From Sphingopyxis microcysteis (GTDB lineage: Bacteria; Pseudomonadota; Alphaproteobacteria; Sphingomonadales; Sphingomonadaceae), in NCBI RefSeq assembly GCF_012274265.1, contig NZ_JAANYY010000003.1, forward strand, positions 186,001 through 250,000: DNA of 64,000 nucleotides. The letters run 5' to 3'. The notes below the pieces were generated by a model, which did no database searches, was not told the DNA's origin, and worked only from the letters and a program-made list of their open reading frames with translations. Numbering within the stretch: the stretch's first letter is position 1; the number at the start of each line of letters is the position of its first letter. The translations under genes and the position numbers were made by a program. Positions 39,470-50,736 of this stretch are shown in pieces.

Positions 39470-40439
39470 GCCGTGCAATATCCGTCCAGTTTTCCCGCGC
39501 GGATCAGCCCGCCATAATAGTCCGCCATCGCTTTGGCCCGCACGCTGTCATCGCCGATCCACCGCGACGCGGCCGCGAGCCAGCCCGCCGAGCAGCCCTC
39601 AAGCGCGCCTGCGCCGCGCGCGCAAGCGATAAAATCGCCAAAGGCGTCGCGCCAGCGATGAAAATCGGCGGTCGACATGATCGGGCCATGACCCGGGACG
39701 ACCTGTTCGGCACCCGAAGCGGCGACGTCATCCAGCGCCGCCAGCCAGCCTTCGGGGCAGGCGGTGTCGAGGAATGGTGCGGGTAACGTGACCAGATCGC
39801 CCACGATCGCGCGTTTCTGGTCCGCATCGTAAATCCACAGGTCGCGCTCGGTCGCCGCGAGGTGGGCGACGCGAAGCGACAGCGGACGCCCGGCGATGAC
39901 CATGTCGCGCGTTTCGTCGACGATCACATCGGGCCGAAGCTCCGTCCCCCGCGCGATGGTCGCCAAGTCGCCCTCGACGTCGCCGACGGCCGCGGCGGGG
40001 ACGGCGCCCTCGGCAAGCGCCTTGCGCGAGGCGGCAGCACTGTTCGCGAGAAAGCCCATCAGCGCGCCGTCGATCGCCGAGGTGCCATAGACCTTGAGCC
40101 TCGGGAAAGCTGCCTTCAGCGCCGGATTGCCGCTCACATGGTCAAGATGCCAATGGGTGTTGACGATGGCGACCAGCGACATGCCGATTCCGCTCAGCCC
40201 CGTTTGATCAGGGTCAGATGCTCGGCATGGCGCCCCGTGTCGACAACGATCGCCCCCTCCGGCCCATACAGGATCACGCTGTTGCCGTCCGGCGAGCGGC
40301 CGGGCGGGAAAGTGCCGCCGATCAGGAAGGTCGCGCCGCCAATTCCGTGCGCATAAGTGCGCGGCGCCGGAACGGTTTCGACTGCGGGCGTTGCCGTGCA
40401 GGAGGCGAGCGCCAGCGCGGCGAACACCCCCCAGCGCAT
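39466..40439 (-). pseudogene. MBL-fold metallo-hydrolase lipoprotein gene split by a one-base frameshift
   Basis: Two adjoining frames encode one metallo-beta-lactamase-fold protein. The first (40439 to 40194, 81 residues) has a lipoprotein-like signal (ALASC) and GPEGAIVVDTGRHAEHLTLI, then stops at TGA. The second frame, read without its own start, continues into GLSGIGMSLVAIVNTHWHLD (zinc motif HxHxDH) down to 39466. Adding one G to the four-base run at 40198-40201 would join them into about 324 residues. The rest appears intact, including GHGPIMS. A restart at ATG 40182, 11 bases after the stop, could still make the second part. It could also be a sequencing error. Confidence 0.8.
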
Positions 40440-41221
40440 CAGACCTGCCGCTCGGCTTCCATTTTCTTGATCTCGGCGATCGCGCGCGCGGGGCTCAGTC
40501 CCTTGGGGCAGGCGTTCGAGCAGTTCATGATCGTGTGGCAGCGATAGAGGCGGAAGGGGTCTTCCAGCTCGTCGAGGCGCTCGCCGGTCATTTCGTCGCG
40601 GCTATCGGCGAGCCAGCGATACGCCTGAAGCAGGATCGCGGGGCCCAGGAACTTGTCGCTGTTCCACCAATAGCTGGGGCAGCTGGTCGAGCAGCAGGCG
40701 CACAGGATGCACTCATAAAGCCCGTCGAGCTTTTCGCGCTCGGCGGGCGATTGCAGCCGCTCCTTGCCGCTCGGCGTCGTCGTCTTGGTTTTCAGCCAGG
40801 GTTCGATCGACGCATATTGCGCATAGAAATGGGTGAAGTCGGGAACCAGATCCTTGATCACGTCCATCGCGGGCAGCGGCGTGATCGTGATGTCGCCCTT
40901 CAGATCCTCGATCGCGGTGGTGCAGGCGAGGCCGTTCTTGCCGTTCATGTTCATCGAACAGCTGCCGCAAATCCCCTCGCGGCACGAGCGGCGGAAGGTC
41001 AGCGAGCTATCCTGTTCGCTCTTCATCTTGATCAGCGCATCGAGCACCATCGGGCCGCACTTCTGGGTGTCGATCTCGAAGGTATCGAAGCGCGGATTCT
41101 GGCCGCTGTCGGGGTCGTAGCGATAGACTTTGAACGTCTTGACCGCGGCCGCGCCTTCGGCCTTGTGGACCTTGCCCGTCTTTTGCGGGCGGCTGTTCTT
41201 GGGCAGACGGAATTCGGCCAT
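40439..41221 (-). CDS. sdhB: succinate dehydrogenase iron-sulfur subunit
   Basis: A 260-residue SdhB. The 2Fe-2S cluster ligands are in [16 protein letters not shown] and a following GLAC; the 4Fe-4S and 3Fe-4S ligands are in [16 protein letters not shown] and [15 protein letters not shown]. It passes electrons from SdhA to ubiquinone at the inner membrane. sdhC, sdhD and sdhA are not upstream as they usually are; the next upstream gene reads the other way. A promoter-like pair lies 28 bases upstream. The stop shares one base with the next gene. Confidence 0.96.
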
Positions 41222-41532
41222 GTCGCGGGCTCCCTGTACGATTGCGGGCTGACTAGACCCGATTGGCAGGGACGACAAGGGGTTGGATAGGGTGAAATCG
41301 CCCTGAAATTGCCTTCCCCCTTGATAGGCGAAGGATACTCAGCCTTGCCGCAAAGCGGCTAGGCGAAGTTGGATGGGGGTGAGGGTGCGCCCTGGCACCG
41401 TGGTTTCAGGCCGACAGCGCACCCCCTCCGCTGCGAGTAAGCCAGCAAGCTGGCAAGTCTCGCTGCCTCCCCCATCAAGGGGGGAGGGAAGATTGCTTTA
41501 TTCGTCAGCCAACAAACGCTACGTGCGCAGCG
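41222..41532. other. 311-base divergent intergenic region (sdhB / flippase) with repeat
   Basis: No gene was found. The left end holds the presumed sdhB promoter. From about 41310 to 41492 there is a large imperfect palindrome: CCTTCCCCCTTGATAGGCGA and GATGGGGGTGAGGGTGCGCC pair loosely with CACCCCCTCCGCTGCGAGTA and CCCCCATCAAGGGGGGAGGG. It looks like a distant relative of repeat family D. Confidence 0.6.
41250..41278 (-). promoter_or_regulatory. putative sdhB promoter
   Basis: On the minus strand TTGTCG (41278-41273) and TAGTCA (41255-41250) are 17 bases apart, and the -10 ends 28 bases before the sdhB start. AGGGAG stands about 8 bases before ATG 41221. Matches to the sigma-70 boxes are moderate. 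It supports sdhB being transcribed on its own. Confidence 0.4.
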
Positions 41533-43077
41533 ATGAGCGAAAGCGCCGCCCAACCCGCCGTCACCAGCCGCAGCGTCGCGCGCGGACTGGGTACCACGGT
41601 ACTCGCGCGGCTCGGCGCGGTGGTCGAAATCGTCGCACAGCCGCTCTATGTACTGATGTTCGGGCTGGCCGGATACGGCCTCTATGCGGTGCTGTGGGCG
41701 GCGATCAACCTGCTCGAAAATATCTTCGACATGGGCATGACCAGCGCGATGCAGCGCACCGTGCCGCAATCGGCGAGCGACGCCGAAGCAGCGGCGGCGC
41801 TGCGTACGGCGATGATTTTCGGCGTCGGCCCGTGCATCCTTGTCGCGGCGCTGATCGCCGCATTTGCTGCCGATCTTGGTCCGCTGCTCAATGTCGCCGC
41901 CAGCGACCGCGACCTCGTCACGCCTGCGATCCGGGTGTTCGTGTGGGCATTGCCGTTATGGGCCTTTGTCGAGATTGCAACGTCGGCGCTGCGTGCGCGG
42001 ATGGTGTTCGGCGCCGAAATCCGGCTGCGGATCGTTTGGGAACAGGTGCTGCGACTGGTGTTCGCCGGGCTGTTTTTTGCGGGCGGGCTCGGGCTGAAAG
42101 GATTGTTCATCGCGCACCTCTGCTCGCTGGCGATCACCGCGATCCTGTGCGTCCGGTTGCTTGCCCAACATTACGACCTCAGCGGCTTTTGGCGCGGCCC
42201 CCGCGGCACCGAAACGGCGCGCAATACCTTTTGGGCCGGGCTGTCGATCCTGCCGTCGAACATTATCGCGCGCCTGTTCGGTGACGCCCCCGCGCTAGTG
42301 CTGAACCTGCTGTTGCCCGGCGCGGCGGGCGCCGCGGCGGCGGGGCTGTTCACCATCGCGCGCAAGCTGTCGAGCGTCGTCCAGCTTGTTCGCATCGCAT
42401 TTGTCTATGTGATGGCGCCGCTCGCGGCCAGCGCCGAGCGCCGGGATCGGGCGCAAGTCGCTGATATTTATGCCTATGCAACCCGGCTGATCTCGGCGAT
42501 CGCGCTACCGCTCGCCGCCGTCCTCGCAGCGGGCAGCGCGTCGCTGCTCAGCCTGTTCGGCGCACAGGCGCAGGCCGCGCAGGCCGCGCTCGTGATCCTG
42601 CTGTTCGCGCGCGCCGCCGAAGCGGTGCTCGGCATTTCGTCGCCGGTGTTGCAGGTCGTATCGGCGTTTCGCCACCAGCTCACCGCCAGCATCTTTGGCG
42701 TCGCCGTGGCGGTCGGCGCCGGCTGGCTGATCCTTGGGCATATGGATGCGCTCACCGGGGTCACGCTCGCGACGTCGATCGGTCTGGTGGTGATGGCGGG
42801 TATTCCGACCCTGCAGCTGGCCATGAACGAAAAGCTGCACCCGTTCGACCATCAGTTCCCGGTCGTTGCGACGCGCGGCATGGCGCTGACCTTGGTCGCG
42901 GGCGCCGCGGCGCTGCTCGCCGACCGATTGCCCGATCCGGTTGCGCTGCCGCTGATCGTGATCATCGCGCTGGGATCGATATGGGCCGCGATCCGTTTCG
43001 CGCTACCCTATGCCGACCGCGCGTCGCTCGGCAAAGCGGGACGGAAATTGCGGCTGATCGGGGACGATACCCCATGA
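41533..43077 (+). CDS. polysaccharide/lipid flippase of the MOP superfamily (Wzx-like)
   Basis: A 514-residue membrane protein with about 12-14 transmembrane helices and the polysaccharide-biosynthesis layout (first helix pair ARGLGTTVLARLGAVVEIVA, central ARKLSSVVQLVRIAFVYVMA). MOP flippases carry lipid-linked sugars or lipids across the inner membrane. It heads the plus-strand set of five overlapping genes for alcohol-phosphate chemistry, so its cargo is presumably their product. The next gene's ATG overlaps its stop by four bases. Confidence 0.88.
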   Translation: MSESAAQPAVTSRSVARGLGTTVLARLGAVVEIVAQPLYVLMFGLAGYGLYAVLWAAINLLENIFDMGMTSAMQRTVPQSASDAEAAAALRTAMIFGVGPCILVAALIAAFAADLGPLLNVAASDRDLVTPAIRVFVWALPLWAFVEIATSALRARMVFGAEIRLRIVWEQVLRLVFAGLFFAGGLGLKGLFIAHLCSLAITAILCVRLLAQHYDLSGFWRGPRGTETARNTFWAGLSILPSNIIARLFGDAPALVLNLLLPGAAGAAAAGLFTIARKLSSVVQLVRIAFVYVMAPLAASAERRDRAQVADIYAYATRLISAIALPLAAVLAAGSASLLSLFGAQAQAAQAALVILLFARAAEAVLGISSPVLQVVSAFRHQLTASIFGVAVAVGAGWLILGHMDALTGVTLATSIGLVVMAGIPTLQLAMNEKLHPFDHQFPVVATRGMALTLVAGAAALLADRLPDPVALPLIVIIALGSIWAAIRFALPYADRASLGKAGRKLRLIGDDTP

Positions 43078-43784
43078 CCGGTTCCCCCGCGCGCATCGCC
43101 ATTTACGATCTTGACCGCACCGTGCTGCGCAAGCCGACATTCACCCTGTTCCTCTTGTGGGCGCCGGCCCGCGAGGCGCCGTGGCGCCTGTTGCTGCTCC
43201 CGCTGCTCGCCGCGCTGATGATCGGTTACGCGCTGCGCCTTTACGGTCGCGACCGGTTCAAGCCCGCCGCCATCCACCTGATGCTCGGATCGCATTTGAC
43301 GCCCGCGCGCGCGGCGCGGCTTGCTGCCCGTTTTGCCGCCTGGCGCGTGCCGCGCGATGTGCCGCCGGGCGCCCGGGCCTGCATCGCGCGCGACCGGGCC
43401 GAGGGCTACCGGCTGTTGATGGCGACCGCGGCGCCCGAATTTTACGCGGGCGCGATCGCCGACGCGCTGAACTTCGACGCGATCGTCGCCTCGCGCCACC
43501 AGCGCGACGCCGACGGCAATTGGCTGCCGCTGCTCGACGGCCCCAATTGCTACGGCGCCGAAAAAGCGCGGCGGGTCGCCGAATGGATCGAAAGTCACGC
43601 GGCTGGCGCGACGCATATCCGCGCCTATTCGGACCATGTCAGCGACGCGCCGACCTTTGCCCTCGCGGACGAAGCGTGGCTGGTCGGGCGCGGCGAAAAA
43701 TCTGTCCGGCTGGCAGCGCGGCACGGCTGGCAGGTAGCCGACTTTGAAAGTGAGGCGGCGGGCACCGCTGCCAAGGTGCGGTAA
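43074..43784 (+). CDS. HAD-IB family phosphatase
   Basis: A 236-residue HAD hydrolase with the nucleophile motif IYDLDRTVLRK, the alpha-helical cap typical of subfamily IB (related to PSP and CicA), a Lys-bearing GAEKARRVAEW and the motif IV acids in YSDHVSDAPTFALAD. A hydrophobic stretch at about residues 30-50 may dip into the membrane. It probably dephosphorylates a small phosphate ester, here perhaps an intermediate of the neighbouring pathway. ATGA overlap with the flippase gene; TAATG overlap with the next. Confidence 0.88.
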   Translation: MTGSPARIAIYDLDRTVLRKPTFTLFLLWAPAREAPWRLLLLPLLAALMIGYALRLYGRDRFKPAAIHLMLGSHLTPARAARLAARFAAWRVPRDVPPGARACIARDRAEGYRLLMATAAPEFYAGAIADALNFDAIVASRHQRDADGNWLPLLDGPNCYGAEKARRVAEWIESHAAGATHIRAYSDHVSDAPTFALADEAWLVGRGEKSVRLAARHGWQVADFESEAAGTAAKVR

Positions 43785-44923
43785 TGCGCATCCTGTTCCT
43801 GTTCATCGGCGAACCGCACCAGATTTTCCACGCGCTGCCGATCGCGGCCGAAATGGCGGCTGCGGGCAGCGATGTCGAGGTCGCGGTCGCCAGCACCGGA
43901 CATCTGCCGGTGGTCGAACGGGTAATGGCAGCCTATCCCGGCTTTTCGCCCCGGATCAGGCTGCTCGGGCAGCGCGGGATCAGCCACTGGCTGCGCGCGC
44001 GTGCGATCATTCGCCATCCGCGCCTGCCGATCCTGTTCGGCGCGCTGCGCTTTTTGCGCCAGTTCGACGCGATCGTCGTACCCGAACGGACGACAACCGC
44101 GATCCGCCACTTCCTGCCGCGCCGCACCCGGCTGATCTTTACCCCGCATGGCGCGGGCGACCGCGCGATCATGCTCGACCCGCGCGACCGCCATTTCGAT
44201 TTTGTGCTGGTCGCGGGCGAAAAGAGCGAACAGCGCCTGCTCGATGCCGGAACCATCCGACCGGGCCATTATGCGCTCAACGGCTATGTGAAGCTCGACC
44301 TGATGACGCGTCTGGACAAGACGCGCGCGCGGCTGTTCGACAATGATCGCCCGACCGTCCTCTATGCACCGCATTTCCATCGCGGGCTGTCGTCGTGGGA
44401 CCGGTTCGGGCGCGACATCATCGACTGGTTCGCGGCGCAGGGCCGGTACAACCTCGTCGTTGCGCCGCACATCCGCCTGTTTGCCGAGGCCAGCGACGGC
44501 GATCGCGCGGCGATCAAAACGCTGGCTATTCCGGGCAAGATTCTGATCGATCTCGATTCCGACCGGCTGTTCGACATGAGCTACACCAGCGGCTCCGACC
44601 TCTATCTGGGCGATGTCAGCAGCCAGGTTTACGAATTTCTGGCGACCCCGCGCCCCTGCCTGTTTCTCAACGCGCATGACGCGCAATGGGTCGGCGACCC
44701 CGACTATCTGTTCTGGACGCTCGGCGACGTCATCGACGATGTGGCAGACCTTCCCAATGCGCTCGATCAGGCGACAGCGCGTCATTCGCGCTATATCGAC
44801 GCGCAACGCGAGCGGCTGGCGGAATCGATCGGCGGCGATCCGGCGGGCGCGGCGCAGCGCGGGGCCGAGGCGATCGCGCGCTTCCTTGCAAAGGATGCTG
44901 CACAGGATAAGAGCGGCGGATGA
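43784..44923 (+). CDS. CDP-glycerol glycerophosphotransferase-like protein
   Basis: A 379-residue GT-B-like protein of the Glyphos_transf family. The N-terminal half starts MRILFLFIGEPHQIFHALP; the C-terminal half has VLYAPHFHRGLSSWDRFG and SDLYLGDVSSQVYEFLATPR, the blocks that bind the CDP-alcohol in teichoic-acid-type enzymes. It would move a polyol phosphate from a CDP-polyol to an acceptor. Such genes are unusual in Gram-negative bacteria and are mostly found in surface polymer loci. Overlaps both neighbours. Confidence 0.82.
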   Translation: MRILFLFIGEPHQIFHALPIAAEMAAAGSDVEVAVASTGHLPVVERVMAAYPGFSPRIRLLGQRGISHWLRARAIIRHPRLPILFGALRFLRQFDAIVVPERTTTAIRHFLPRRTRLIFTPHGAGDRAIMLDPRDRHFDFVLVAGEKSEQRLLDAGTIRPGHYALNGYVKLDLMTRLDKTRARLFDNDRPTVLYAPHFHRGLSSWDRFGRDIIDWFAAQGRYNLVVAPHIRLFAEASDGDRAAIKTLAIPGKILIDLDSDRLFDMSYTSGSDLYLGDVSSQVYEFLATPRPCLFLNAHDAQWVGDPDYLFWTLGDVIDDVADLPNALDQATARHSRYIDAQRERLAESIGGDPAGAAQRGAEAIARFLAKDAAQDKSGG

Positions 44924-46023
44924 GCGAACCAACGACCCTGCCCGCGCTGGCACTGATCGGCGACAATCCGACCCTGCTATGGGGAATGACCAACGCCGAA
45001 CGGCTGCGCCGCATGGCGCGCGCCGAAGGCTTGCCCGACACGCCGCCTGCGTCCGGGACGCGGCTGTTCGTCAACCTCGACTATGTGTTCGACCCGGTGT
45101 GGCTGCGGCATATCGTGACGCTGCCCGGCACCGTCGTGATGGACGGCGATGCGCTGGTGATGGCGCATCTGACCGGCGGCCTCGGTCCCGATGACATCGC
45201 GGCGCATCGGGATGCGCTCACGATCATCGACTACCGCGACAAGCCGCAAATCTATAACCGCCAGCTGCGCAAGCTCGATACGCCGTTCATCCAGCGGCTG
45301 ACCCCCGAAACGCGACGCGAAATCGAACGCAAAAGCTATTTCGGCGCCTATAAGGGCGTTACCGACGTGCTGACCAAATATCTGTGGCCCGAACTCGCGC
45401 TATGGCTGACGCGGATCGCCGCCAGCATCGGCATGACCCCGAATATGGTCACCGCGATCGGCGCCGCGCTCTGCGTCTACGCGACCTATTTGTTTGCCTA
45501 TGGCCATTACTGGACCGGAATGCTCGCCGCGTTCATTTTCATGGTTTTCGACACCGTCGACGGCAAGCTCGCGCGCTGCACGATCACCTCGTCGAAATGG
45601 GGCAATGTCGCCGATCATGGCGTCGACCTGATCCACCCGCCCTTCTGGTGGTATTTCTGGGGCGTCGGGCTCGGCAGTTGGGGGCTCGCGCTGTCGACAC
45701 AGACCTTCCTGTTCGTGATGATCGCCGTGCTCGCTGGCTATGTGCTCCAGCGGGTGATCGAGGGGATGTTCATCAAGGATTTCGGGATGGACGTCCATGT
45801 GTGGCGGCGCTTCGACAGCCAGTTCCGCCTGATCACCGCGCGGCGCAACCCGAATATCGCGATCCTGTTTTTCGCGACGCTTGCCGGGCGCCCCGACATC
45901 GGGCTGATCGCGGTCGCGTGGTGGACGATTATTTCGCTGGTCGTTCATGCGGTGCAGCTGGTTCAGGCCTATGCGCAGCGGCGCGCCGGGCGCCCGATTG
46001 TCAGCTGGATGGAGGAAGCATGA
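44920..46023 (+). CDS. CDP-alcohol phosphatidyltransferase family protein with extra N-terminal domain
   Basis: A 367-residue protein. The C-terminal 200 residues form the CDP-alcohol phosphatidyltransferase membrane domain, with the full signature D-x2-DG-x2-AR-x8-G-x3-D-x3-D in DTVDGKLARCTITSSKWGNV and ADHGVD. The first about 130 residues are soluble; the segment LIGDNPTLLWGMTNAERLRR and MDGDALVMAHL recall nucleotidyltransferase domains that are fused to such enzymes in inositol-phosphate synthases, but the P-loop is not seen. YNRQLRKLDTPFIQRLTPET and KSYFGAYKGVTDVLTK link the parts. The CDP-alcohol used is unknown. Confidence 0.88.
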   Translation: MSEPTTLPALALIGDNPTLLWGMTNAERLRRMARAEGLPDTPPASGTRLFVNLDYVFDPVWLRHIVTLPGTVVMDGDALVMAHLTGGLGPDDIAAHRDALTIIDYRDKPQIYNRQLRKLDTPFIQRLTPETRREIERKSYFGAYKGVTDVLTKYLWPELALWLTRIAASIGMTPNMVTAIGAALCVYATYLFAYGHYWTGMLAAFIFMVFDTVDGKLARCTITSSKWGNVADHGVDLIHPPFWWYFWGVGLGSWGLALSTQTFLFVMIAVLAGYVLQRVIEGMFIKDFGMDVHVWRRFDSQFRLITARRNPNIAILFFATLAGRPDIGLIAVAWWTIISLVVHAVQLVQAYAQRRAGRPIVSWMEEA

Positions 46024-46448
46024 ACGACACCATCGCGAAATTCGGCTACCCCGCGACGCTGATCGCCGAATATGACCATTGGGTCGTGCTGCTGCGCCCC
46101 GCCCAGCCAACGCTCGGCGCGCTGGTGCTGGCCGCAAAATCCGACGCCACGGCGTTCGGCGATTTGCCCGCGGCGGCGCACGCAGAACTCAAGGTCGCGA
46201 CGTCGGCGATCGAGGCCGCGTTGAGTCAAGCGGTCGGCTATACCCGGATCAATTATCTGATGCTGATGATGGTCGATCCGCACGTCCATTTCCACGTCCT
46301 GCCGCGCTATGACGGCGAACGAATGGGCGCGGGCCTTGCGGTCACCGATACCGGTTGGCCGGGGCCGCCCGATCTGGCGCAGGCGGTCAAGCTGGGCGAT
46401 GCACAGATCGCCGCGCTCACCGGCTGGCTCAAACCCTATTTCGCGTAG
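46020..46448 (+). CDS. HIT family protein
   Basis: A 142-residue histidine-triad protein with HVHFHVLPR as the nucleotide-hydrolase or transferase motif. The N-terminus (FGYPATLIAEYDHWVVLLRP) matches HIT proteins near lipid and polymer genes. It may hydrolyse or transfer a nucleotidyl group. Its ATG overlaps the stop of the CDP-alcohol transferase gene. The 3' end overlaps the convergent cytidylyltransferase gene by 13 bases. Confidence 0.9.
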   Translation: MNDTIAKFGYPATLIAEYDHWVVLLRPAQPTLGALVLAAKSDATAFGDLPAAAHAELKVATSAIEAALSQAVGYTRINYLMLMMVDPHVHFHVLPRYDGERMGAGLAVTDTGWPGPPDLAQAVKLGDAQIAALTGWLKPYFA

Positions 46449-47200
46449 CGGCCTTCCTCGGCCCATTTCGCGGTAAGCGCATCGGCGGCTTCGACGTCCT
46501 GCGGGAAGTCGACTTCCTGCCAGTCCAGCCCCTCGATCGACGCGGTGCCGACGCGGTTGCCCTTGGCGATGACATCGATCGCGCGCAGATACCAGCGCTC
46601 GACCCCTTCGGGAGTGCGCATCATCTGGTCGACCTGGCTGCGGAAAATCGACGGGCCGTCGCCGACGAAGGCGAGCATGCCGATCGATTCCGCATTGGTA
46701 TCGGGGGGCAGCAGGCGCTTGCCGATATGGTGCAGGCGGCCGTCGGCGTCGCGGTTCACTTTCATATCGTCGTCGTCATAGTCGGCCTTGACGTCGACGG
46801 TGACGGTGATCGGCTCATGGGCGCCCGCGATCAACTTCGCGACGATCTCTTCCGAAACGATGGTGTCACCGTTGAGGATGATGAAATCGCGGTCCATCTC
46901 CTCGCGCGCGATCCAGCAGGTGCCAAGATTGTCGGCGACCTGAAAGAAGGGGTTGAACAGGGTGCGGATGCGCACGCCGGTATCGCGGTAAAGCTGCAAT
47001 GCATGATCCTCGACACGCTCGGTACGGAACCCGGTGACGACGACGATGTCCTTGATACCGTTGGCGGCAAGCGCCGCGACCTGCCAGCCGATCAAGGTCC
47101 GGCCATTGAGGTCGATCAGGCATTTGGGAATGTCGCGGGTCAGCGGCAACAGGCGCGAACCCTGCCCGGCCGACAGAATGATGGCTTTTTCGATGGTCAT
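46436..47200 (-). CDS. COG1213-type phospho-alcohol cytidylyltransferase
   Basis: A 254-residue nucleotidyltransferase with the signature AIILSAGQGSRLLPLTRDIP (residues 6-25), KCLIDLNGRTLIGWQ, GTCWIAREEM and ILNGDTIV (metal Asp). This is the family of phosphocholine and inositol-phosphate cytidylyltransferases. It would form CDP-alcohol from CTP and an alcohol phosphate, and so could supply the CDP-alcohol and glycerophosphotransferases encoded opposite. Its ATG overlaps the preceding nucleotidyltransferase stop by four bases. Confidence 0.88.
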   Translation of the reverse strand: MTIEKAIILSAGQGSRLLPLTRDIPKCLIDLNGRTLIGWQVAALAANGIKDIVVVTGFRTERVEDHALQLYRDTGVRIRTLFNPFFQVADNLGTCWIAREEMDRDFIILNGDTIVSEEIVAKLIAGAHEPITVTVDVKADYDDDDMKVNRDADGRLHHIGKRLLPPDTNAESIGMLAFVGDGPSIFRSQVDQMMRTPEGVERWYLRAIDVIAKGNRVGTASIEGLDWQEVDFPQDVEAADALTAKWAEEGRYAK

Positions 47201-47982
47201 AGCGGCTGCCCTATAGCGGCTTGCCGCCGCGCGGCAAAGATTTGCTCGATCAGCACGATGTCGGCGGGCTTGTCGGCGTCGATGCACGCCTCGGCCTCGG
47301 ACATCGGTACCACGCTGGCGTGGAGGCCGAAGCGCAGACCCGCGCGCGCGACGCCCTGCTGGATCGTGAACAGGCGAAGCAGCGCGCCGATCAGCAACCA
47401 TGGGCCAAAGGCAGCGATGATCTTCAGCCCCTTTTTGCGGTCGCGTTCGATGCGGCCCCAGAAATCGAGCAGCGGCAATACGCGCCGTCCGCGCAGGTAG
47501 AACATGTTCGCCCCCGACCACCAGCCGCCGCGGAATTTCAGCCAGGTGCGTTTCGATTCCGGATAGCGCGCGAGCAGCACATCACGCTCGACCATCGCCA
47601 CCGCAACATCCTTGTCCGCGGCACCGTGCAGGAATTCGGCGATCATCGTCGGCGTCAGCAACACATTGTCGGCGGTCGTCACCAGCAGCGGTTCCTCACC
47701 GGCGGGGAGCGCCGCGGCGAGCGAGCTGCTGATCCCCTGCCCCGAGTCCGCAAAATGCAGGTCGGCGAACCCTGCCAGCCCCGACGCCGCCGCCAGCTCG
47801 GCGCTGTTCTGCGCCAGTATCGTGATCGGGCCGACATCGGGCGACGCCCGTAATGCGCCGACGACATGGACCAGCATCGCGTCGCCCGCGATCGGCAGCA
47901 GCGCCTTGGTCGATACGCCGCTCCCCGTCAGCAGCGGGTCGGGACCGGGACGGCTGCCCGCGAGGACGATCGCGGGGATCAT
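47197..47982 (-). CDS. MobA-like nucleotidyltransferase
   Basis: A 261-residue protein of the NTP_transf_3/MobA-like class. It begins PAIVLAGSRPGPDPLLTGSG and STKALLPIAGDAMLVHVVGA, with VTTADNVLLTPTM in place of the usual Asp-rich metal site. It may activate a sugar or alcohol phosphate. Both ends overlap neighbours by four bases, placing it in the same message as the cytidylyltransferase. The C-terminal part (about residues 165-215) is hydrophobic and may contact the membrane. Confidence 0.82.
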   Translation of the reverse strand: MIPAIVLAGSRPGPDPLLTGSGVSTKALLPIAGDAMLVHVVGALRASPDVGPITILAQNSAELAAASGLAGFADLHFADSGQGISSSLAAALPAGEEPLLVTTADNVLLTPTMIAEFLHGAADKDVAVAMVERDVLLARYPESKRTWLKFRGGWWSGANMFYLRGRRVLPLLDFWGRIERDRKKGLKIIAAFGPWLLIGALLRLFTIQQGVARAGLRFGLHASVVPMSEAEACIDADKPADIVLIEQIFAARRQAAIGQPL

Positions 47983-48938
47983 TGCGCAAGCGGCGCCGGT
48001 GCGATGCGCCGCGCCGTGGCGCCGCGCAGGAAATCGGTCATTTCGGGCAGGATCGGCCCCTTGTACGCCAGCGGTTTGGTGAGCGCCATGACGAGGTCGT
48101 TGTGGCTGAGCCCGTCATATTCGCGTAGCGTTGCCGAACCGCCAACCTTGTGCATCGCCGCCGCCAGTCGCTGGCTATTGCGCACGCGTACCACCGTGTC
48201 GGCGGTGCCATGGCCGAGCCACAGCGGCGGCGCGTCGCCGCGCACGAAACGGATCGGCTGCGTCCGTTCGATGGGGCGAATGTCGCCCATCGCCACATCG
48301 GCGCGGCCACCCTTTTCGAAAGGCGCAAAATCATAGGGGCCGGCAAGCGCCGCGACGCCGCGGATCACCGACGTATCGCTGCCCGCCGCGCGCAGCCATT
48401 GCGGGTCGAGCGCCAGCATCACGGCATTATAGGCGCCCGCCGAATGGCCCGCCAGTGCGATGCGATCGGGATCGCCGCCATAATTGCCGATATGCGCGTC
48501 GGTCCACGCCACCGCGGCGGCGCTGTCGTTCAGGAAGTCGGGCCAATGCCCGTCAGGGACGATGCGATAATCGGGGATGACAACGACAAAGCCCCGTTTG
48601 GCAAAGGCGCGACCGGCAAAACCATAGTCGTCGCGCGCGCCGCTGTACCAGCCACCGCCATAGAGGAAAACGAGCACCGGCAGCCTGTCGGTCTTGTTCG
48701 TTCCCGTCGGCACCCAGATGTTGAGCTTGTTGCGCGCGCCCGCGCCATAGGGCTGCCCTGCCACCTGCAAAGTCGCGCCGCCACCGTCGCCCAGCAACCG
48801 GTCGCCGAGGTTGAGCGACTTTGCCCCGCCCGCAACGATCACCCGCGCCGCGCCGCCGAACAACAGCACCAGCAGCACGGCCACCAACAGATATTTGATC
48901 AATCGCCGTCCTTTGGAAATCGGTGCTGCCATCGTCAC
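47979..48938 (-). CDS. membrane-anchored alpha/beta hydrolase (BD-FAE/esterase-like)
   Basis: A 319-residue protein with one N-terminal membrane helix (about residues 14-35) and an alpha/beta hydrolase domain. The oxyanion motif is YGGGWYSG (an HGGGW variant), the nucleophile Ser is in GHSAGAYNA, and the charge relay is late in HGTADTVV and LSHND. It resembles esterases and kynurenine-formamidase-like enzymes; role in this locus unknown, perhaps deacylation. It is first of the three-gene minus-strand set. Confidence 0.85.
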   Translation of the reverse strand: MTMAAPISKGRRLIKYLLVAVLLVLLFGGAARVIVAGGAKSLNLGDRLLGDGGGATLQVAGQPYGAGARNKLNIWVPTGTNKTDRLPVLVFLYGGGWYSGARDDYGFAGRAFAKRGFVVVIPDYRIVPDGHWPDFLNDSAAAVAWTDAHIGNYGGDPDRIALAGHSAGAYNAVMLALDPQWLRAAGSDTSVIRGVAALAGPYDFAPFEKGGRADVAMGDIRPIERTQPIRFVRGDAPPLWLGHGTADTVVRVRNSQRLAAAMHKVGGSATLREYDGLSHNDLVMALTKPLAYKGPILPEMTDFLRGATARRIAPAPLAQ

Positions 48939-49060
48939 GCCCTATCGCGCGGCGAAGCGGGGAACAAGCGGCGGACGAACCGCGCATCTGTGATCAGGGA
49001 GGCGCCGGGATGACGAAATTCAGTGGCCACCTTTTTCGTCCTCATGCGTAGGAAAATCCG

Positions 49061-49891
49061 ATGACCAGCCCCTTCACTCGCCCCGCCCTGATCTGCAACA
49101 CGCAAAGCGGCAGTCATGACGATGCCGTGCGCGAGCAGATTGCCCAGCTATGCCAAACGCATGGCACGCCGCTCGTGGCGACCTTCGCCCTGCCCGAAGG
49201 CGAGATTCCGGACGCCGCCGAGTTGCAGCTGCAGCGCATCGACCTGCTCATCGTGTGGACCGGCGACGGCACGATCAACGCCGCGGCAACCCGGGCCGCG
49301 GGTTGGGGCGGCGCGATCCTGCCGCTCCCCGGCGGTACGCTCAACCTGTTGTCGAAGGCGCTGCACGGCGACCGGCCAGCGACCGAGATCGTCGCCGACG
49401 CCCTTGACGGCAAAGTGCGGCGCTGCCCGATCCCGACCATCGAATCCGACGGCGGCACCGCGTTCATCACCATCGTCGCCGGACCCGCGACACGCTGGGC
49501 CGAAGTGCGGGAGACGATGCGGCAGGACGGGTTGATCGAGGCGAGCCGCGCGGCGCCCGACGCGCTCGACGAGATGATGAACGCCCCGGGCGTGCGTGTC
49601 GGCGAGGACGGCAAGGCCTATCCCGCGGTGATCCTGACCCCGACGCCGATGGGAATTCACGCCGACGGGATCCTGACCGAGGGCACAGCCGACGTGCTAC
49701 GCCATGGGCTCGCCTGGCTCAGCGGCGATTTCCGTGATGGACCAAGCGAACCGATCGTCACCGACGCGACGATCCTATTGGAAAGCGAACAACCGATCAG
49801 CCTGGAATATGACGGCGAGCTCGACGAAGTCGCATCGCCAGCGACGTTCCGCCTTGGCACCAGCGCGGTCGATTTCATCGCCACGGCATGA
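49061..49891 (+). CDS. diacylglycerol kinase catalytic-domain protein
   Basis: A 276-residue protein of the DAGK_cat (LCB5/YegS) superfamily, with the nucleotide motif WTGDGTINAAA and the following ILPLPGGTLNLLSKA. These kinases phosphorylate diacylglycerol, sphingosine-type bases or related lipids; sphingolipid kinase activity would be plausible in a sphingomonad, but this is inference. The next gene's ATG overlaps its stop (ATGA). Confidence 0.88.
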   Translation: MTSPFTRPALICNTQSGSHDDAVREQIAQLCQTHGTPLVATFALPEGEIPDAAELQLQRIDLLIVWTGDGTINAAATRAAGWGGAILPLPGGTLNLLSKALHGDRPATEIVADALDGKVRRCPIPTIESDGGTAFITIVAGPATRWAEVRETMRQDGLIEASRAAPDALDEMMNAPGVRVGEDGKAYPAVILTPTPMGIHADGILTEGTADVLRHGLAWLSGDFRDGPSEPIVTDATILLESEQPISLEYDGELDEVASPATFRLGTSAVDFIATA

Positions 49892-50736
49892 CGCGACTGT
49901 TCCATATCAGCGACCTGCATTTCGGGCTGGAGGATCGCGCCGCGCTCGACTGGTTCCGCGAATGCGTGCGCCGCGAACAGCCCGATGCGGTGCTGATTAC
50001 CGGCGACCTCACGATGCGCGCCCGGAGCCATGAATTTGCCGCCGCATGCGACTGGATCGAGGCGCTTGATGTGCCGGTGACGGTTGAGGTCGGCAACCAT
50101 GACCTGCCCTATTTCAACCCGTTCGCGCGTTTTTTCTGGCCCTATCGCCGGATCCGGCGGATCGAGCGGCTCGTCGAGCGCGAGCTGAACCTCGCCGGGG
50201 TCGCCGTCGTGCCGCTCAAAACCACCGCGCGCGCGCAGTGGCGGCTCGACTGGTCGAAAGGCTGGGTGACGCGCGATGCGCTCGCCAAGACGCTGGCTGC
50301 GGTCGATGCGCTGCCCGTCGGCACCACCGCGCTGGTCACCGCGCACCATCCGCTGGTCGAAGCCGGGACGAAAGGCCGCGCGCTGACCCGCGGCGGCGCG
50401 CGCGCGCTCGAAGCGCTGGCCGCGCGGGGCGTCGCGGCGGTGCTGACCGGCCATGTCCATGACGCATTCGATCTGGTTACCCCGACCGCCGCGGGACCGA
50501 TCCGCATGATCGGCGCCGGAACGCTGTCGCAGCGTATCCGGTCGACCCCGCCCAGCTTCAACGAGCTCCGCATCCGGGATGGCGAAGTCGCGGTTCGGGT
50601 CCGCAACAGCGCCGCGGTGCCGACCCCCGACATGCTCATCGACGCCGTCCCGCCCAACGCCCTCCCTCCGCGCGAACCCGGCGAGCCGGTGGCGCCGATC
50701 CACGCCGTACCCCCGGTCGACCCGCCGGTGCATTGA
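49888..50736 (+). CDS. calcineurin-like metallophosphoesterase
   Basis: A 282-residue metallophosphoesterase with the complete di-metal set: LFHISDLHFG, LITGDLT, VEVGNHD, TAHHPLV and LTGHVHDAF. This branch includes cyclic-nucleotide and phospholipid phosphodiesterases. The C-terminal tail is Pro-rich (PPNALPPREPGEPVAPIHAV). Overlap with the lipid-kinase-like gene suggests a linked role in lipid phosphate turnover. It is cytoplasmic; no signal peptide is seen. Confidence 0.9.
   Translation: MTRLFHISDLHFGLEDRAALDWFRECVRREQPDAVLITGDLTMRARSHEFAAACDWIEALDVPVTVEVGNHDLPYFNPFARFFWPYRRIRRIERLVERELNLAGVAVVPLKTTARAQWRLDWSKGWVTRDALAKTLAAVDALPVGTTALVTAHHPLVEAGTKGRALTRGGARALEALAARGVAAVLTGHVHDAFDLVTPTAAGPIRMIGAGTLSQRIRSTPPSFNELRIRDGEVAVRVRNSAAVPTPDMLIDAVPPNALPPREPGEPVAPIHAVPPVDPPVH

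What the first reader, a model, noticed from the sequence alone, without database searches (positions are those of the whole stretch)
41533..48938. Convergent eight-gene locus for a CDP-alcohol phosphate product
Seen: on the plus strand five overlapping genes (MOP flippase, HAD-IB phosphatase, CDP-glycerol glycerophosphotransferase-like enzyme, CDP-alcohol phosphatidyltransferase, HIT protein) meet three overlapping minus-strand genes (COG1213 cytidylyltransferase, MobA-like nucleotidyltransferase, anchored alpha/beta hydrolase), with a 13-base tail overlap. Known: these enzyme families make and use CDP-polyols in teichoic-acid-like polymers, phosphocholine decoration and inositol-phosphate compounds. 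Inference: an undescribed pathway that activates an alcohol phosphate with CTP, transfers it to a lipid or glycan and flips it. Teichoic-type transferases are rare in Gram-negative bacteria.
Basis: partly seen in the sequence, partly recalled or inferred. Interest (0 to 1): 0.72.

Follow-up and report, generated by a model that had tools for sequence, protein, structure and literature searches.

The report
Sphingolipid phosphoglycerate head-group gene locus
A sphingomonad gene locus that very probably builds the acidic phosphoglycerate head group of bacterial sphingolipids, a pathway recently worked out in Caulobacter, and whose comparison with relatives suggests further enzymes that may belong to that pathway.

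Summary
In detail: genes, order, overlaps and the 13-base tail overlap are there. The reading "undescribed CDP-alcohol pathway" is partly right. Five of eight genes are orthologs of the Caulobacter ceramide-diphosphoglycerate (CPG2) cluster: F = CpgD (51% identity; 12 of 13 published active-site residues kept), D = CpgA, G = CC_1153, C = CC_1167, E = CC_1157. The genome also carries spt, cerS, CpgC, a weak CpgB and LptF2/LptG2, 70-80 kb away. The activated alcohol is most likely glycerate, the acceptor ceramide phosphoglycerate. New here: (1) D and F come as a pair (order: 19 of 19 D genomes, one F without D; class: the same 20 of 289); (2) HIT protein E follows D in 18 of 19 and 15 of 20 (8 class genomes have E alone), though CC_1157 was set aside in print; (3) HAD phosphatase B and phosphoesterase CC_1158 never share a D locus (14 and 16 of 40); (4) TagF-like C, set aside too, sits beside G and B in many genomes without D and F; (5) in one same-genus relative this site holds another flippase, another C and a glycosyltransferase: perhaps a head-group swap locus. 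No chemistry was tested.

The parts
41533..43077 (+). A: MOP-superfamily flippase, presumed to flip the finished lipid; not detectably similar to the Caulobacter flippase CC_1166
   Evidence: Pfam PF13440/PF01943; no blastp match to CC_1166; A-like flippases (29-34%) lie between lptG2 and cerS in G017 and G023
43074..43784 (+). B: HAD-IB phosphatase, presumed stand-in for phosphoesterase CC_1158
   Evidence: Pfam PF12710, motif DLDRT at residue 12; B and CC_1158 never in the same D locus, 14 and 16 of 40. The family also has members outside the pathway
43784..44923 (+). C: TagF-like GT-B transferase, ortholog of Caulobacter CC_1167
44920..46023 (+). D: CDP-alcohol phosphotransferase, ortholog of CC_1159 (CpgA)
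   Evidence: 44%, E 4.7e-88 in a Caulobacter vibrioides genome; signature DxxDGxxAR(8)GxxxDxxxD intact at 211; fold like AF2299 and IPCT-DIPPS (model pLDDT only 69.9)
46020..46448 (+). E: HIT protein, ortholog of CC_1157
   Evidence: 56% over 124 aa; HVHFH at residue 88; present in 18 of 19 (order) and 15 of 20 (class) D genomes, and in 8 class genomes without D
46436..47200 (-). F: COG1213-type cytidylyltransferase, ortholog of CpgD (CC_1152): CTP + 2-phosphoglycerate to CDP-glycerate
   Evidence: 51% over 242 aa; 12 of 13 published active-site residues identical
47197..47982 (-). G: MobA/CofC-like nucleotidyltransferase, ortholog of CC_1153
   Evidence: 37% over 247 aa; found in all 94 of 147 genomes that hold CpgC, and in one more
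47979..48938 (-). H: alpha/beta hydrolase with a hydrophobic N-terminus (my reading); link to the pathway only by neighbourhood
   Evidence: Pfam BD-FAE, GHSAG at 164; beside G or the flippase in G094, G077, G118, G139, G080, G130

Best explanation
The locus is the head-group half of a ceramide phosphoglycerate pathway. Ceramide 1-phosphate and ceramide phosphoglycerate (CPG) are made by genes elsewhere in the same genome. F couples CTP to 2-phosphoglycerate and makes CDP-glycerate; D, a membrane CDP-alcohol phosphotransferase, hands the phosphoglycerate to CPG and gives CPG2; G and the phosphatase B act in the same branch; E, a HIT hydrolase, serves the D-F step, perhaps by clearing a nucleotidylated by-product; C adds a further phospho-alcohol unit independently of D and F; A flips the lipid and the Lpt2 proteins carry it to the outer membrane. 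Shown here: orthology, kept active-site residues, D-F pairing, presence of backbone genes. Published for Caulobacter: CpgD chemistry, CpgB chemistry, mutant lipid profiles. Inferred: everything said of C, E, B, A and H, and the acceptor of D.
For: Orthology to the Caulobacter cluster, anchored by exact matches to the published cpgD and cpgB primers: F, G, D, C, E. Active site: N90, N110, M147, K161 and S170, glycerate contacts of CpgD (PMC13228409, first two of five parts read), are identical in F; N110 and M147 are kept in 37 of 37 orthologs but in 1 of 16 paralogs. Pairing: D in 19 and F in 20 of 147 genomes of the order, 19 shared; in 289 genomes of the class the same 20 hold both. spt lies in the same fetched stretch (at most 19 kb) as D in 11 of the 19 class D stretches. 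Same genome: spt 53%, CpgC 41%, cerS 42%, LptF2 30%, LptG2 28% and an ORF that I read as an ACP at G000:C3 about 145-157 kb; locus at 227.5-235 kb. In print (PMC11324152, sections read): CC_1152 and CC_1153 mutants make no detectable CPG2, and a CC_1159/CC_1160 double mutant needs both genes back for CPG2.
Against: No lipid was measured. The own-genome CpgB candidate is only 27% identical to CpgB over 309 aa. No CC_1158 ortholog was found in the locus (J is 26%, E 9e-9). A, B and H have no match in the Caulobacter stretches searched. E is not obligate: 5 of 20 class D genomes lack it and 8 genomes have it without D. C is absent from 7 of 19 order D genomes. G occurs in 75 genomes that have CpgC but no D, so it cannot be a CPG2-only gene everywhere. 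B-like HADs also occur in 10 genomes without CpgC. Related genomes inflate the Fisher values.
Confidence: 0.8

Rival explanations
1. F and D still work on CDP-glycerate, but the product differs from Caulobacter CPG2: C extends it into a longer or mixed phospho-alcohol chain, a short teichoic-like polymer on ceramide. (A variant of the best explanation, so the odds overlap.)
For: C is TagF-like by fold and weakly by Pfam and lies in one overlapping gene run with D; in Caulobacter it stands beside flippase CC_1166; the spt mutant shows cofitness 0.57 and the CC_1159 mutant 0.54 with CC_1167 mutants (PMC11324152).
Against: C has no strong tie to D or F: 12 of 19 order D genomes have it, and 27 of 39 C genomes lack D. 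The fold does not separate TagF from UDP-GlcNAc 2-epimerase.
Confidence: 0.25
2. A capsule or teichoic-like surface polymer that has nothing to do with sphingolipids.
For: Flippase, TagF-like transferase and nucleotidyltransferases are usual in capsule loci (families; the usage is recalled).
Against: All 19 order D genomes hold CpgC; in 11 of the 19 class D stretches spt is in the same stretch; F keeps the CpgD glycerate contacts.
Confidence: 0.07
3. Phosphocholine or inositol-phosphate chemistry: F as LicC-like or inositol-1-phosphate cytidylyltransferase, D as DIPP synthase.
For: F's best PDB sequence match is a CTP:phosphocholine cytidylyltransferase, 1jyk; D's model resembles IPCT-DIPPS 4mnd, among others.
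Against: F is far nearer to CpgD (51% over 242 aa) than to 1jyk (a 107-residue match at 54 bits), and the glycerate contacts are kept.
Confidence: 0.03

Closest known systems
Caulobacter crescentus ceramide diphosphoglycerate (CPG2) cluster CC_1152-CC_1168 (PMC11324152: sections 8 part 1 and 9 and passages seen; PMC12275187 and PMC13228409: first parts read; PMC10331486: passages only)
   Same: Orthologs of CpgD, CpgA, CC_1153, CC_1157 and CC_1167; backbone genes in the same genome
   Different: Head-group genes separated from the ceramide genes by 70-80 kb; HAD-IB phosphatase and no CC_1158 ortholog seen; flippase without detectable similarity to CC_1166; extra esterase H
Sphingomonas wittichii CPG2 orthologs (PMC11324152, section text read; its tables and figures not seen)
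   Same: A sphingomonad with orthologs of the cluster outside one block, reported to lack CC_1158
   Different: Reported as scattered over 6 regions; here five of them are packed into one locus
IPCT-DIPPS / AF2299 CDP-alcohol phosphotransferases
   Same: D's (weak) model resembles both in fold (4o6n, 4mnd): a small alpha/beta domain before a CDP-alcohol phosphotransferase domain
   Different: The activating enzyme F is a separate protein; D's first 140 residues show no cytidylyltransferase motif (my reading)
Wall teichoic acid TagF / TarL
   Different: C is below Pfam's cut-off for the family; no TagD-type enzyme among the eight genes; donor of C unknown

Membership tests
CPG2 head-group locus | CpgD ortholog with CTP and phosphoglycerate contacts | tested here: met
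   51% identity; 12 of 13 residues identical, the exception a backbone contact
CPG2 head-group locus | CpgA (CC_1159) ortholog with intact catalytic signature | tested here: met
   44% identity, single match in the Caulobacter genome; signature
CPG2 head-group locus | CC_1153 ortholog | tested here: met
   37% over 247 aa
CPG2 head-group locus | spt, cerS and CpgC in the same genome | tested here: met
   53%, 42% and 41% identity
CPG2 head-group locus | CpgB ceramide kinase in the same genome | tested here: inconclusive
   Candidate beside CpgC, but only 27% over 309 aa; cerR and aasR were not seen in the stretches read and not searched elsewhere
CPG2 head-group locus | CC_1158 phosphoesterase (not essential in Caulobacter; reported absent in several proposed CPG2 makers) | tested here: not met
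   In the window only the distant J, 26%; HAD B in the locus; rest of the genome not searched for it
CPG2 head-group locus | CPG2 is made | not testable with these tools
   Needs lipid mass spectrometry
TagF/Glyphos_transf family (for C) | Pfam PF04464 at its gathering score | tested here: not met
   13.5 bits against 22.1; 19 of 20 alignment members match at E 0.1 or better; some relatives carry PF04464 in precomputed lists
TagF/Glyphos_transf family (for C) | GT-B fold closest to TagF | tested here: inconclusive

The most novel reading that the evidence does not exclude
The site between sdhB and the H-I-J-K genes is a head-group typing locus for phosphosphingolipids, the sphingolipid counterpart of an O-antigen locus: fixed flanks, a shared core (G, B, TagF-like C, a flippase) and exchangeable cassettes, either CDP-glycerate (D, E, F) or glycosyltransferases. 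C, the HIT protein E and the HAD phosphatase B are then unrecognised members of the phosphosphingolipid pathway, two of them (CC_1167, CC_1157) set aside as probably unrelated in print.
Probability: 0.4. Interest if true: 0.7.

Novelty: new variant of a known kind. Interest (0 to 1): 0.5.

Why it matters
Anionic sphingolipids help Caulobacter to live without lipopolysaccharide (PMC12275187), and the enzymes that turn CPG into CPG2 are still open. The pairing of D and F supports CpgA as the user of CDP-glycerate, as proposed in print, and the profiles nominate a HIT protein, a HAD phosphatase and a TagF-like transferase as further parts. Each can be tested by a single gene removal. If the site is a swap locus, sphingomonads vary their sphingolipid head groups much as other bacteria vary O-antigens.

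Tried and rejected
Rejected readings: phosphocholine or inositol chemistry (F is nearest CpgD); defence genes (no PADLOC match for 8 proteins at E 0.001); a structured RNA (no Rfam family at gathering score in 40000-50000); a second COG1213 enzyme in the genome (the other three matches to F cover 65-75 residues only). I first thought the neighbours I (DAGK_cat) and J (metallophosphatase) were CpgB and CC_1158: I shows no significant match to CpgB (E 0.028) and J is only 26% to CC_1158, so I left both out. I first thought C is the user of CDP-glycerate; its profile does not follow F, D's does.

Led nowhere: the fold of C does not tell TagF from epimerase; the model of D is poor. The order-wide search for CpgB did not complete, so CpgB's distribution is unknown; CC_1158 was looked for only in fetched stretches. 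Paper searches listed nothing new to the point.

Full report
What is there. The window lies at G000:C3:186001-250000 of a 3.46 Mb genome, probably Sphingopyxis: the nearest named relatives of C and D are Sphingopyxis. Searches confirm all eight genes, the overlaps and the 13-base tail overlap. Two relatives of the same genus, G094 and G077, keep the whole order.

What it is. A pattern search with the published cpgD primer found two Caulobacter vibrioides records; in the genome of one of them (L006, G147) both published cpgB primers match exactly. Numbering of the other CC_ genes follows gene order and the published description, so it is inferred. F matches CpgD at 51% over 242 aa, G matches CC_1153 at 37% over 247, D matches CC_1159 at 44%, C matches CC_1167 at 43% over 374, and E matches CC_1157 at 56% over 124. 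A, B and H have no match in the three Caulobacter stretches at E 0.001. CpgD makes CDP-glycerate from CTP and phosphoglycerate (PMC12275187: parts 1 and 2 of 4 read; PMC13228409: parts 1 and 2 of 5 read). Of the 13 CpgD residues that I took from these papers, 12 are identical in F; the exception, T88, is a backbone contact. Glycerate contacts N110 and M147 are kept in 37 of 37 orthologs (18 order, 19 class; the split G023 copy was left out) and in 1 of 16 paralogs. K161 does not discriminate (16 of 16 paralogs keep it), nor does T93 (33 of 37 orthologs and all 16 paralogs have S), and 12 of the 16 paralogs show gaps at K26 and W201, so those two columns are not used.

The rest of the pathway. 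The same genome holds spt, a CpgC and a weak CpgB candidate side by side, LptF2, LptG2, a fatty acid desaturase-family gene and cerS at G000:C3 about 146-157 kb. The locus is at 227.5-235 kb.

Phylogenetic profiles. Order (147 genomes each): D strong (E below 1e-40) in 19, F strong in 20, 19 shared, the exception being G002 with F alone. Weaker matches, 11 genomes for D and 24 for F, were dropped as paralogs before the count. E in 18, all within the 19, G053 lacking it. C strong in 39, after dropping one weak match in G045. CpgC in 94, G in 95, 94 shared; the extra one, G040, is 64% complete. All 39 C genomes and all 19 D genomes hold CpgC and G. B in 54 at E 1e-14, of which 10 lack CpgC, and several genomes, the own one included, hold two copies, so this HAD family is not confined to the pathway. 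Class (289 genomes each; 4 of them also in the order sample): D 20 and F 20 at E 1e-30, identical sets; E 23 at E 1e-10, of which 15 with D. In G100 and G119 D and F are on different contigs, in G140 and G110 more than 0.7 Mb apart on one contig, in G320 about 0.13 Mb apart, so linkage alone does not explain the pairing. In four genera of the order (g1, g2, g12, g15) some members have D and some do not, and F follows D in each. Fisher values ignore relatedness and are not used as probabilities.

B and CC_1158. In 40 D loci (39 fetched, from 37 genomes, plus the window) B occurs in 14, CC_1158 in 16, both in 0, neither in 10. Under independence the chance of no overlap would be 8e-5, again without correction for kinship. 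Genome-wide, 5 of the 19 order D genomes lack B: G020, G026 and G031, which carry CC_1158 in the locus, and G127 and G145, where neither was seen. In 20 stretches around C in genomes without D: B 14, CC_1158 1, both 0, neither 5. B and G lie within 55 bases of each other, or overlap, in 16 of the 56 stretches (match edges, not gene ends). In print the CC_1153 and CC_1158 mutants both accumulate CPG, and the authors suspect another gene that partly substitutes for CC_1158 (PMC11324152). A HAD phosphatase in that role is my inference.

C. Pfam puts it below the TagF family cut-off. The model (pLDDT 84.7) is GT-B; TagF and UDP-GlcNAc 2-epimerase tie. C is not tied to F, so a donor other than CDP-glycerate, possibly made by G, fits better; this is a guess from neighbourhood.

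A variable site. SdhB lies next to the locus in the window, G094 and G077, and within the fetched stretch in G118, G139, G071, G134, G123, G047 and G133. In G118, of the same genus, the flanks match well (SdhB 92%, G 79%, H 69%, I 64%, J 84%, K 78%) and B matches at 66%, but C is 35%, A, D, E and F are not found in the stretch, and a CC_1166-like flippase and a GT2 glycosyltransferase stand there, beside a short ORF without a Pfam match. G139 and G047 carry a GT4. The interior was read in four variants only: G118, G133, G139, G047; G133 has an A-type flippase (72%) but no C, D, E or F match in its stretch.

Against known work. The library holds three papers with the term CDP-glycerate; PMC11324152 calls CC_1157 and CC_1167 'probably unrelated'. 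In the listings of searches I saw no paper that joins a HIT, HAD or TagF-like protein to the pathway, but only searched for such a family by name, and HIT or HAD were not search terms there; in PMC11324152 HIT does not occur as a word. Most subscription papers are not held; the first CPG report, reference 6 of PMC12275187, did not come up. The known part is therefore a new variant of a known locus; the new parts are hypotheses from comparison of genomes.

Noticed in passing
window 41309-41490: A roughly 180-base element with 23-base inverted terminal arms (83% complementary) between sdhB and A, like a small non-coding mobile element; could mark exchange at this site.
   Followed up: partly
window 49061-50736: A DAGK_cat lipid kinase overlapping a metallophosphatase by 4 bases; both conserved beside H and G in G118 and G139, but the kinase shows no significant match to CpgB and the phosphatase only 26% to CC_1158.
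   Followed up: partly
G000:C3 about 154.4-155.5 kb (L097:18408-19514): A fatty acid desaturase-family gene between lptG2 and cerS; in Caulobacter a DesA-type hydroxylase acting on sphingolipids lies elsewhere (PMC11324152).
   Followed up: no
order-wide: The CC_1153-type nucleotidyltransferase and CpgC occur in practically the same genomes (94 of 94 and 94 of 95), though CC_1153 is described as a CPG2 gene and CpgC as a CPG gene.
   Followed up: partly
L174, L175, L176, L178, L182: A second, more distant CDP-alcohol phosphotransferase (34-36% to CC_1159) lies between lptG2 and cerS in five class genomes; four of them (G183, G310, G407, G331) are among the five class D genomes that lack the HIT protein.
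   Followed up: no
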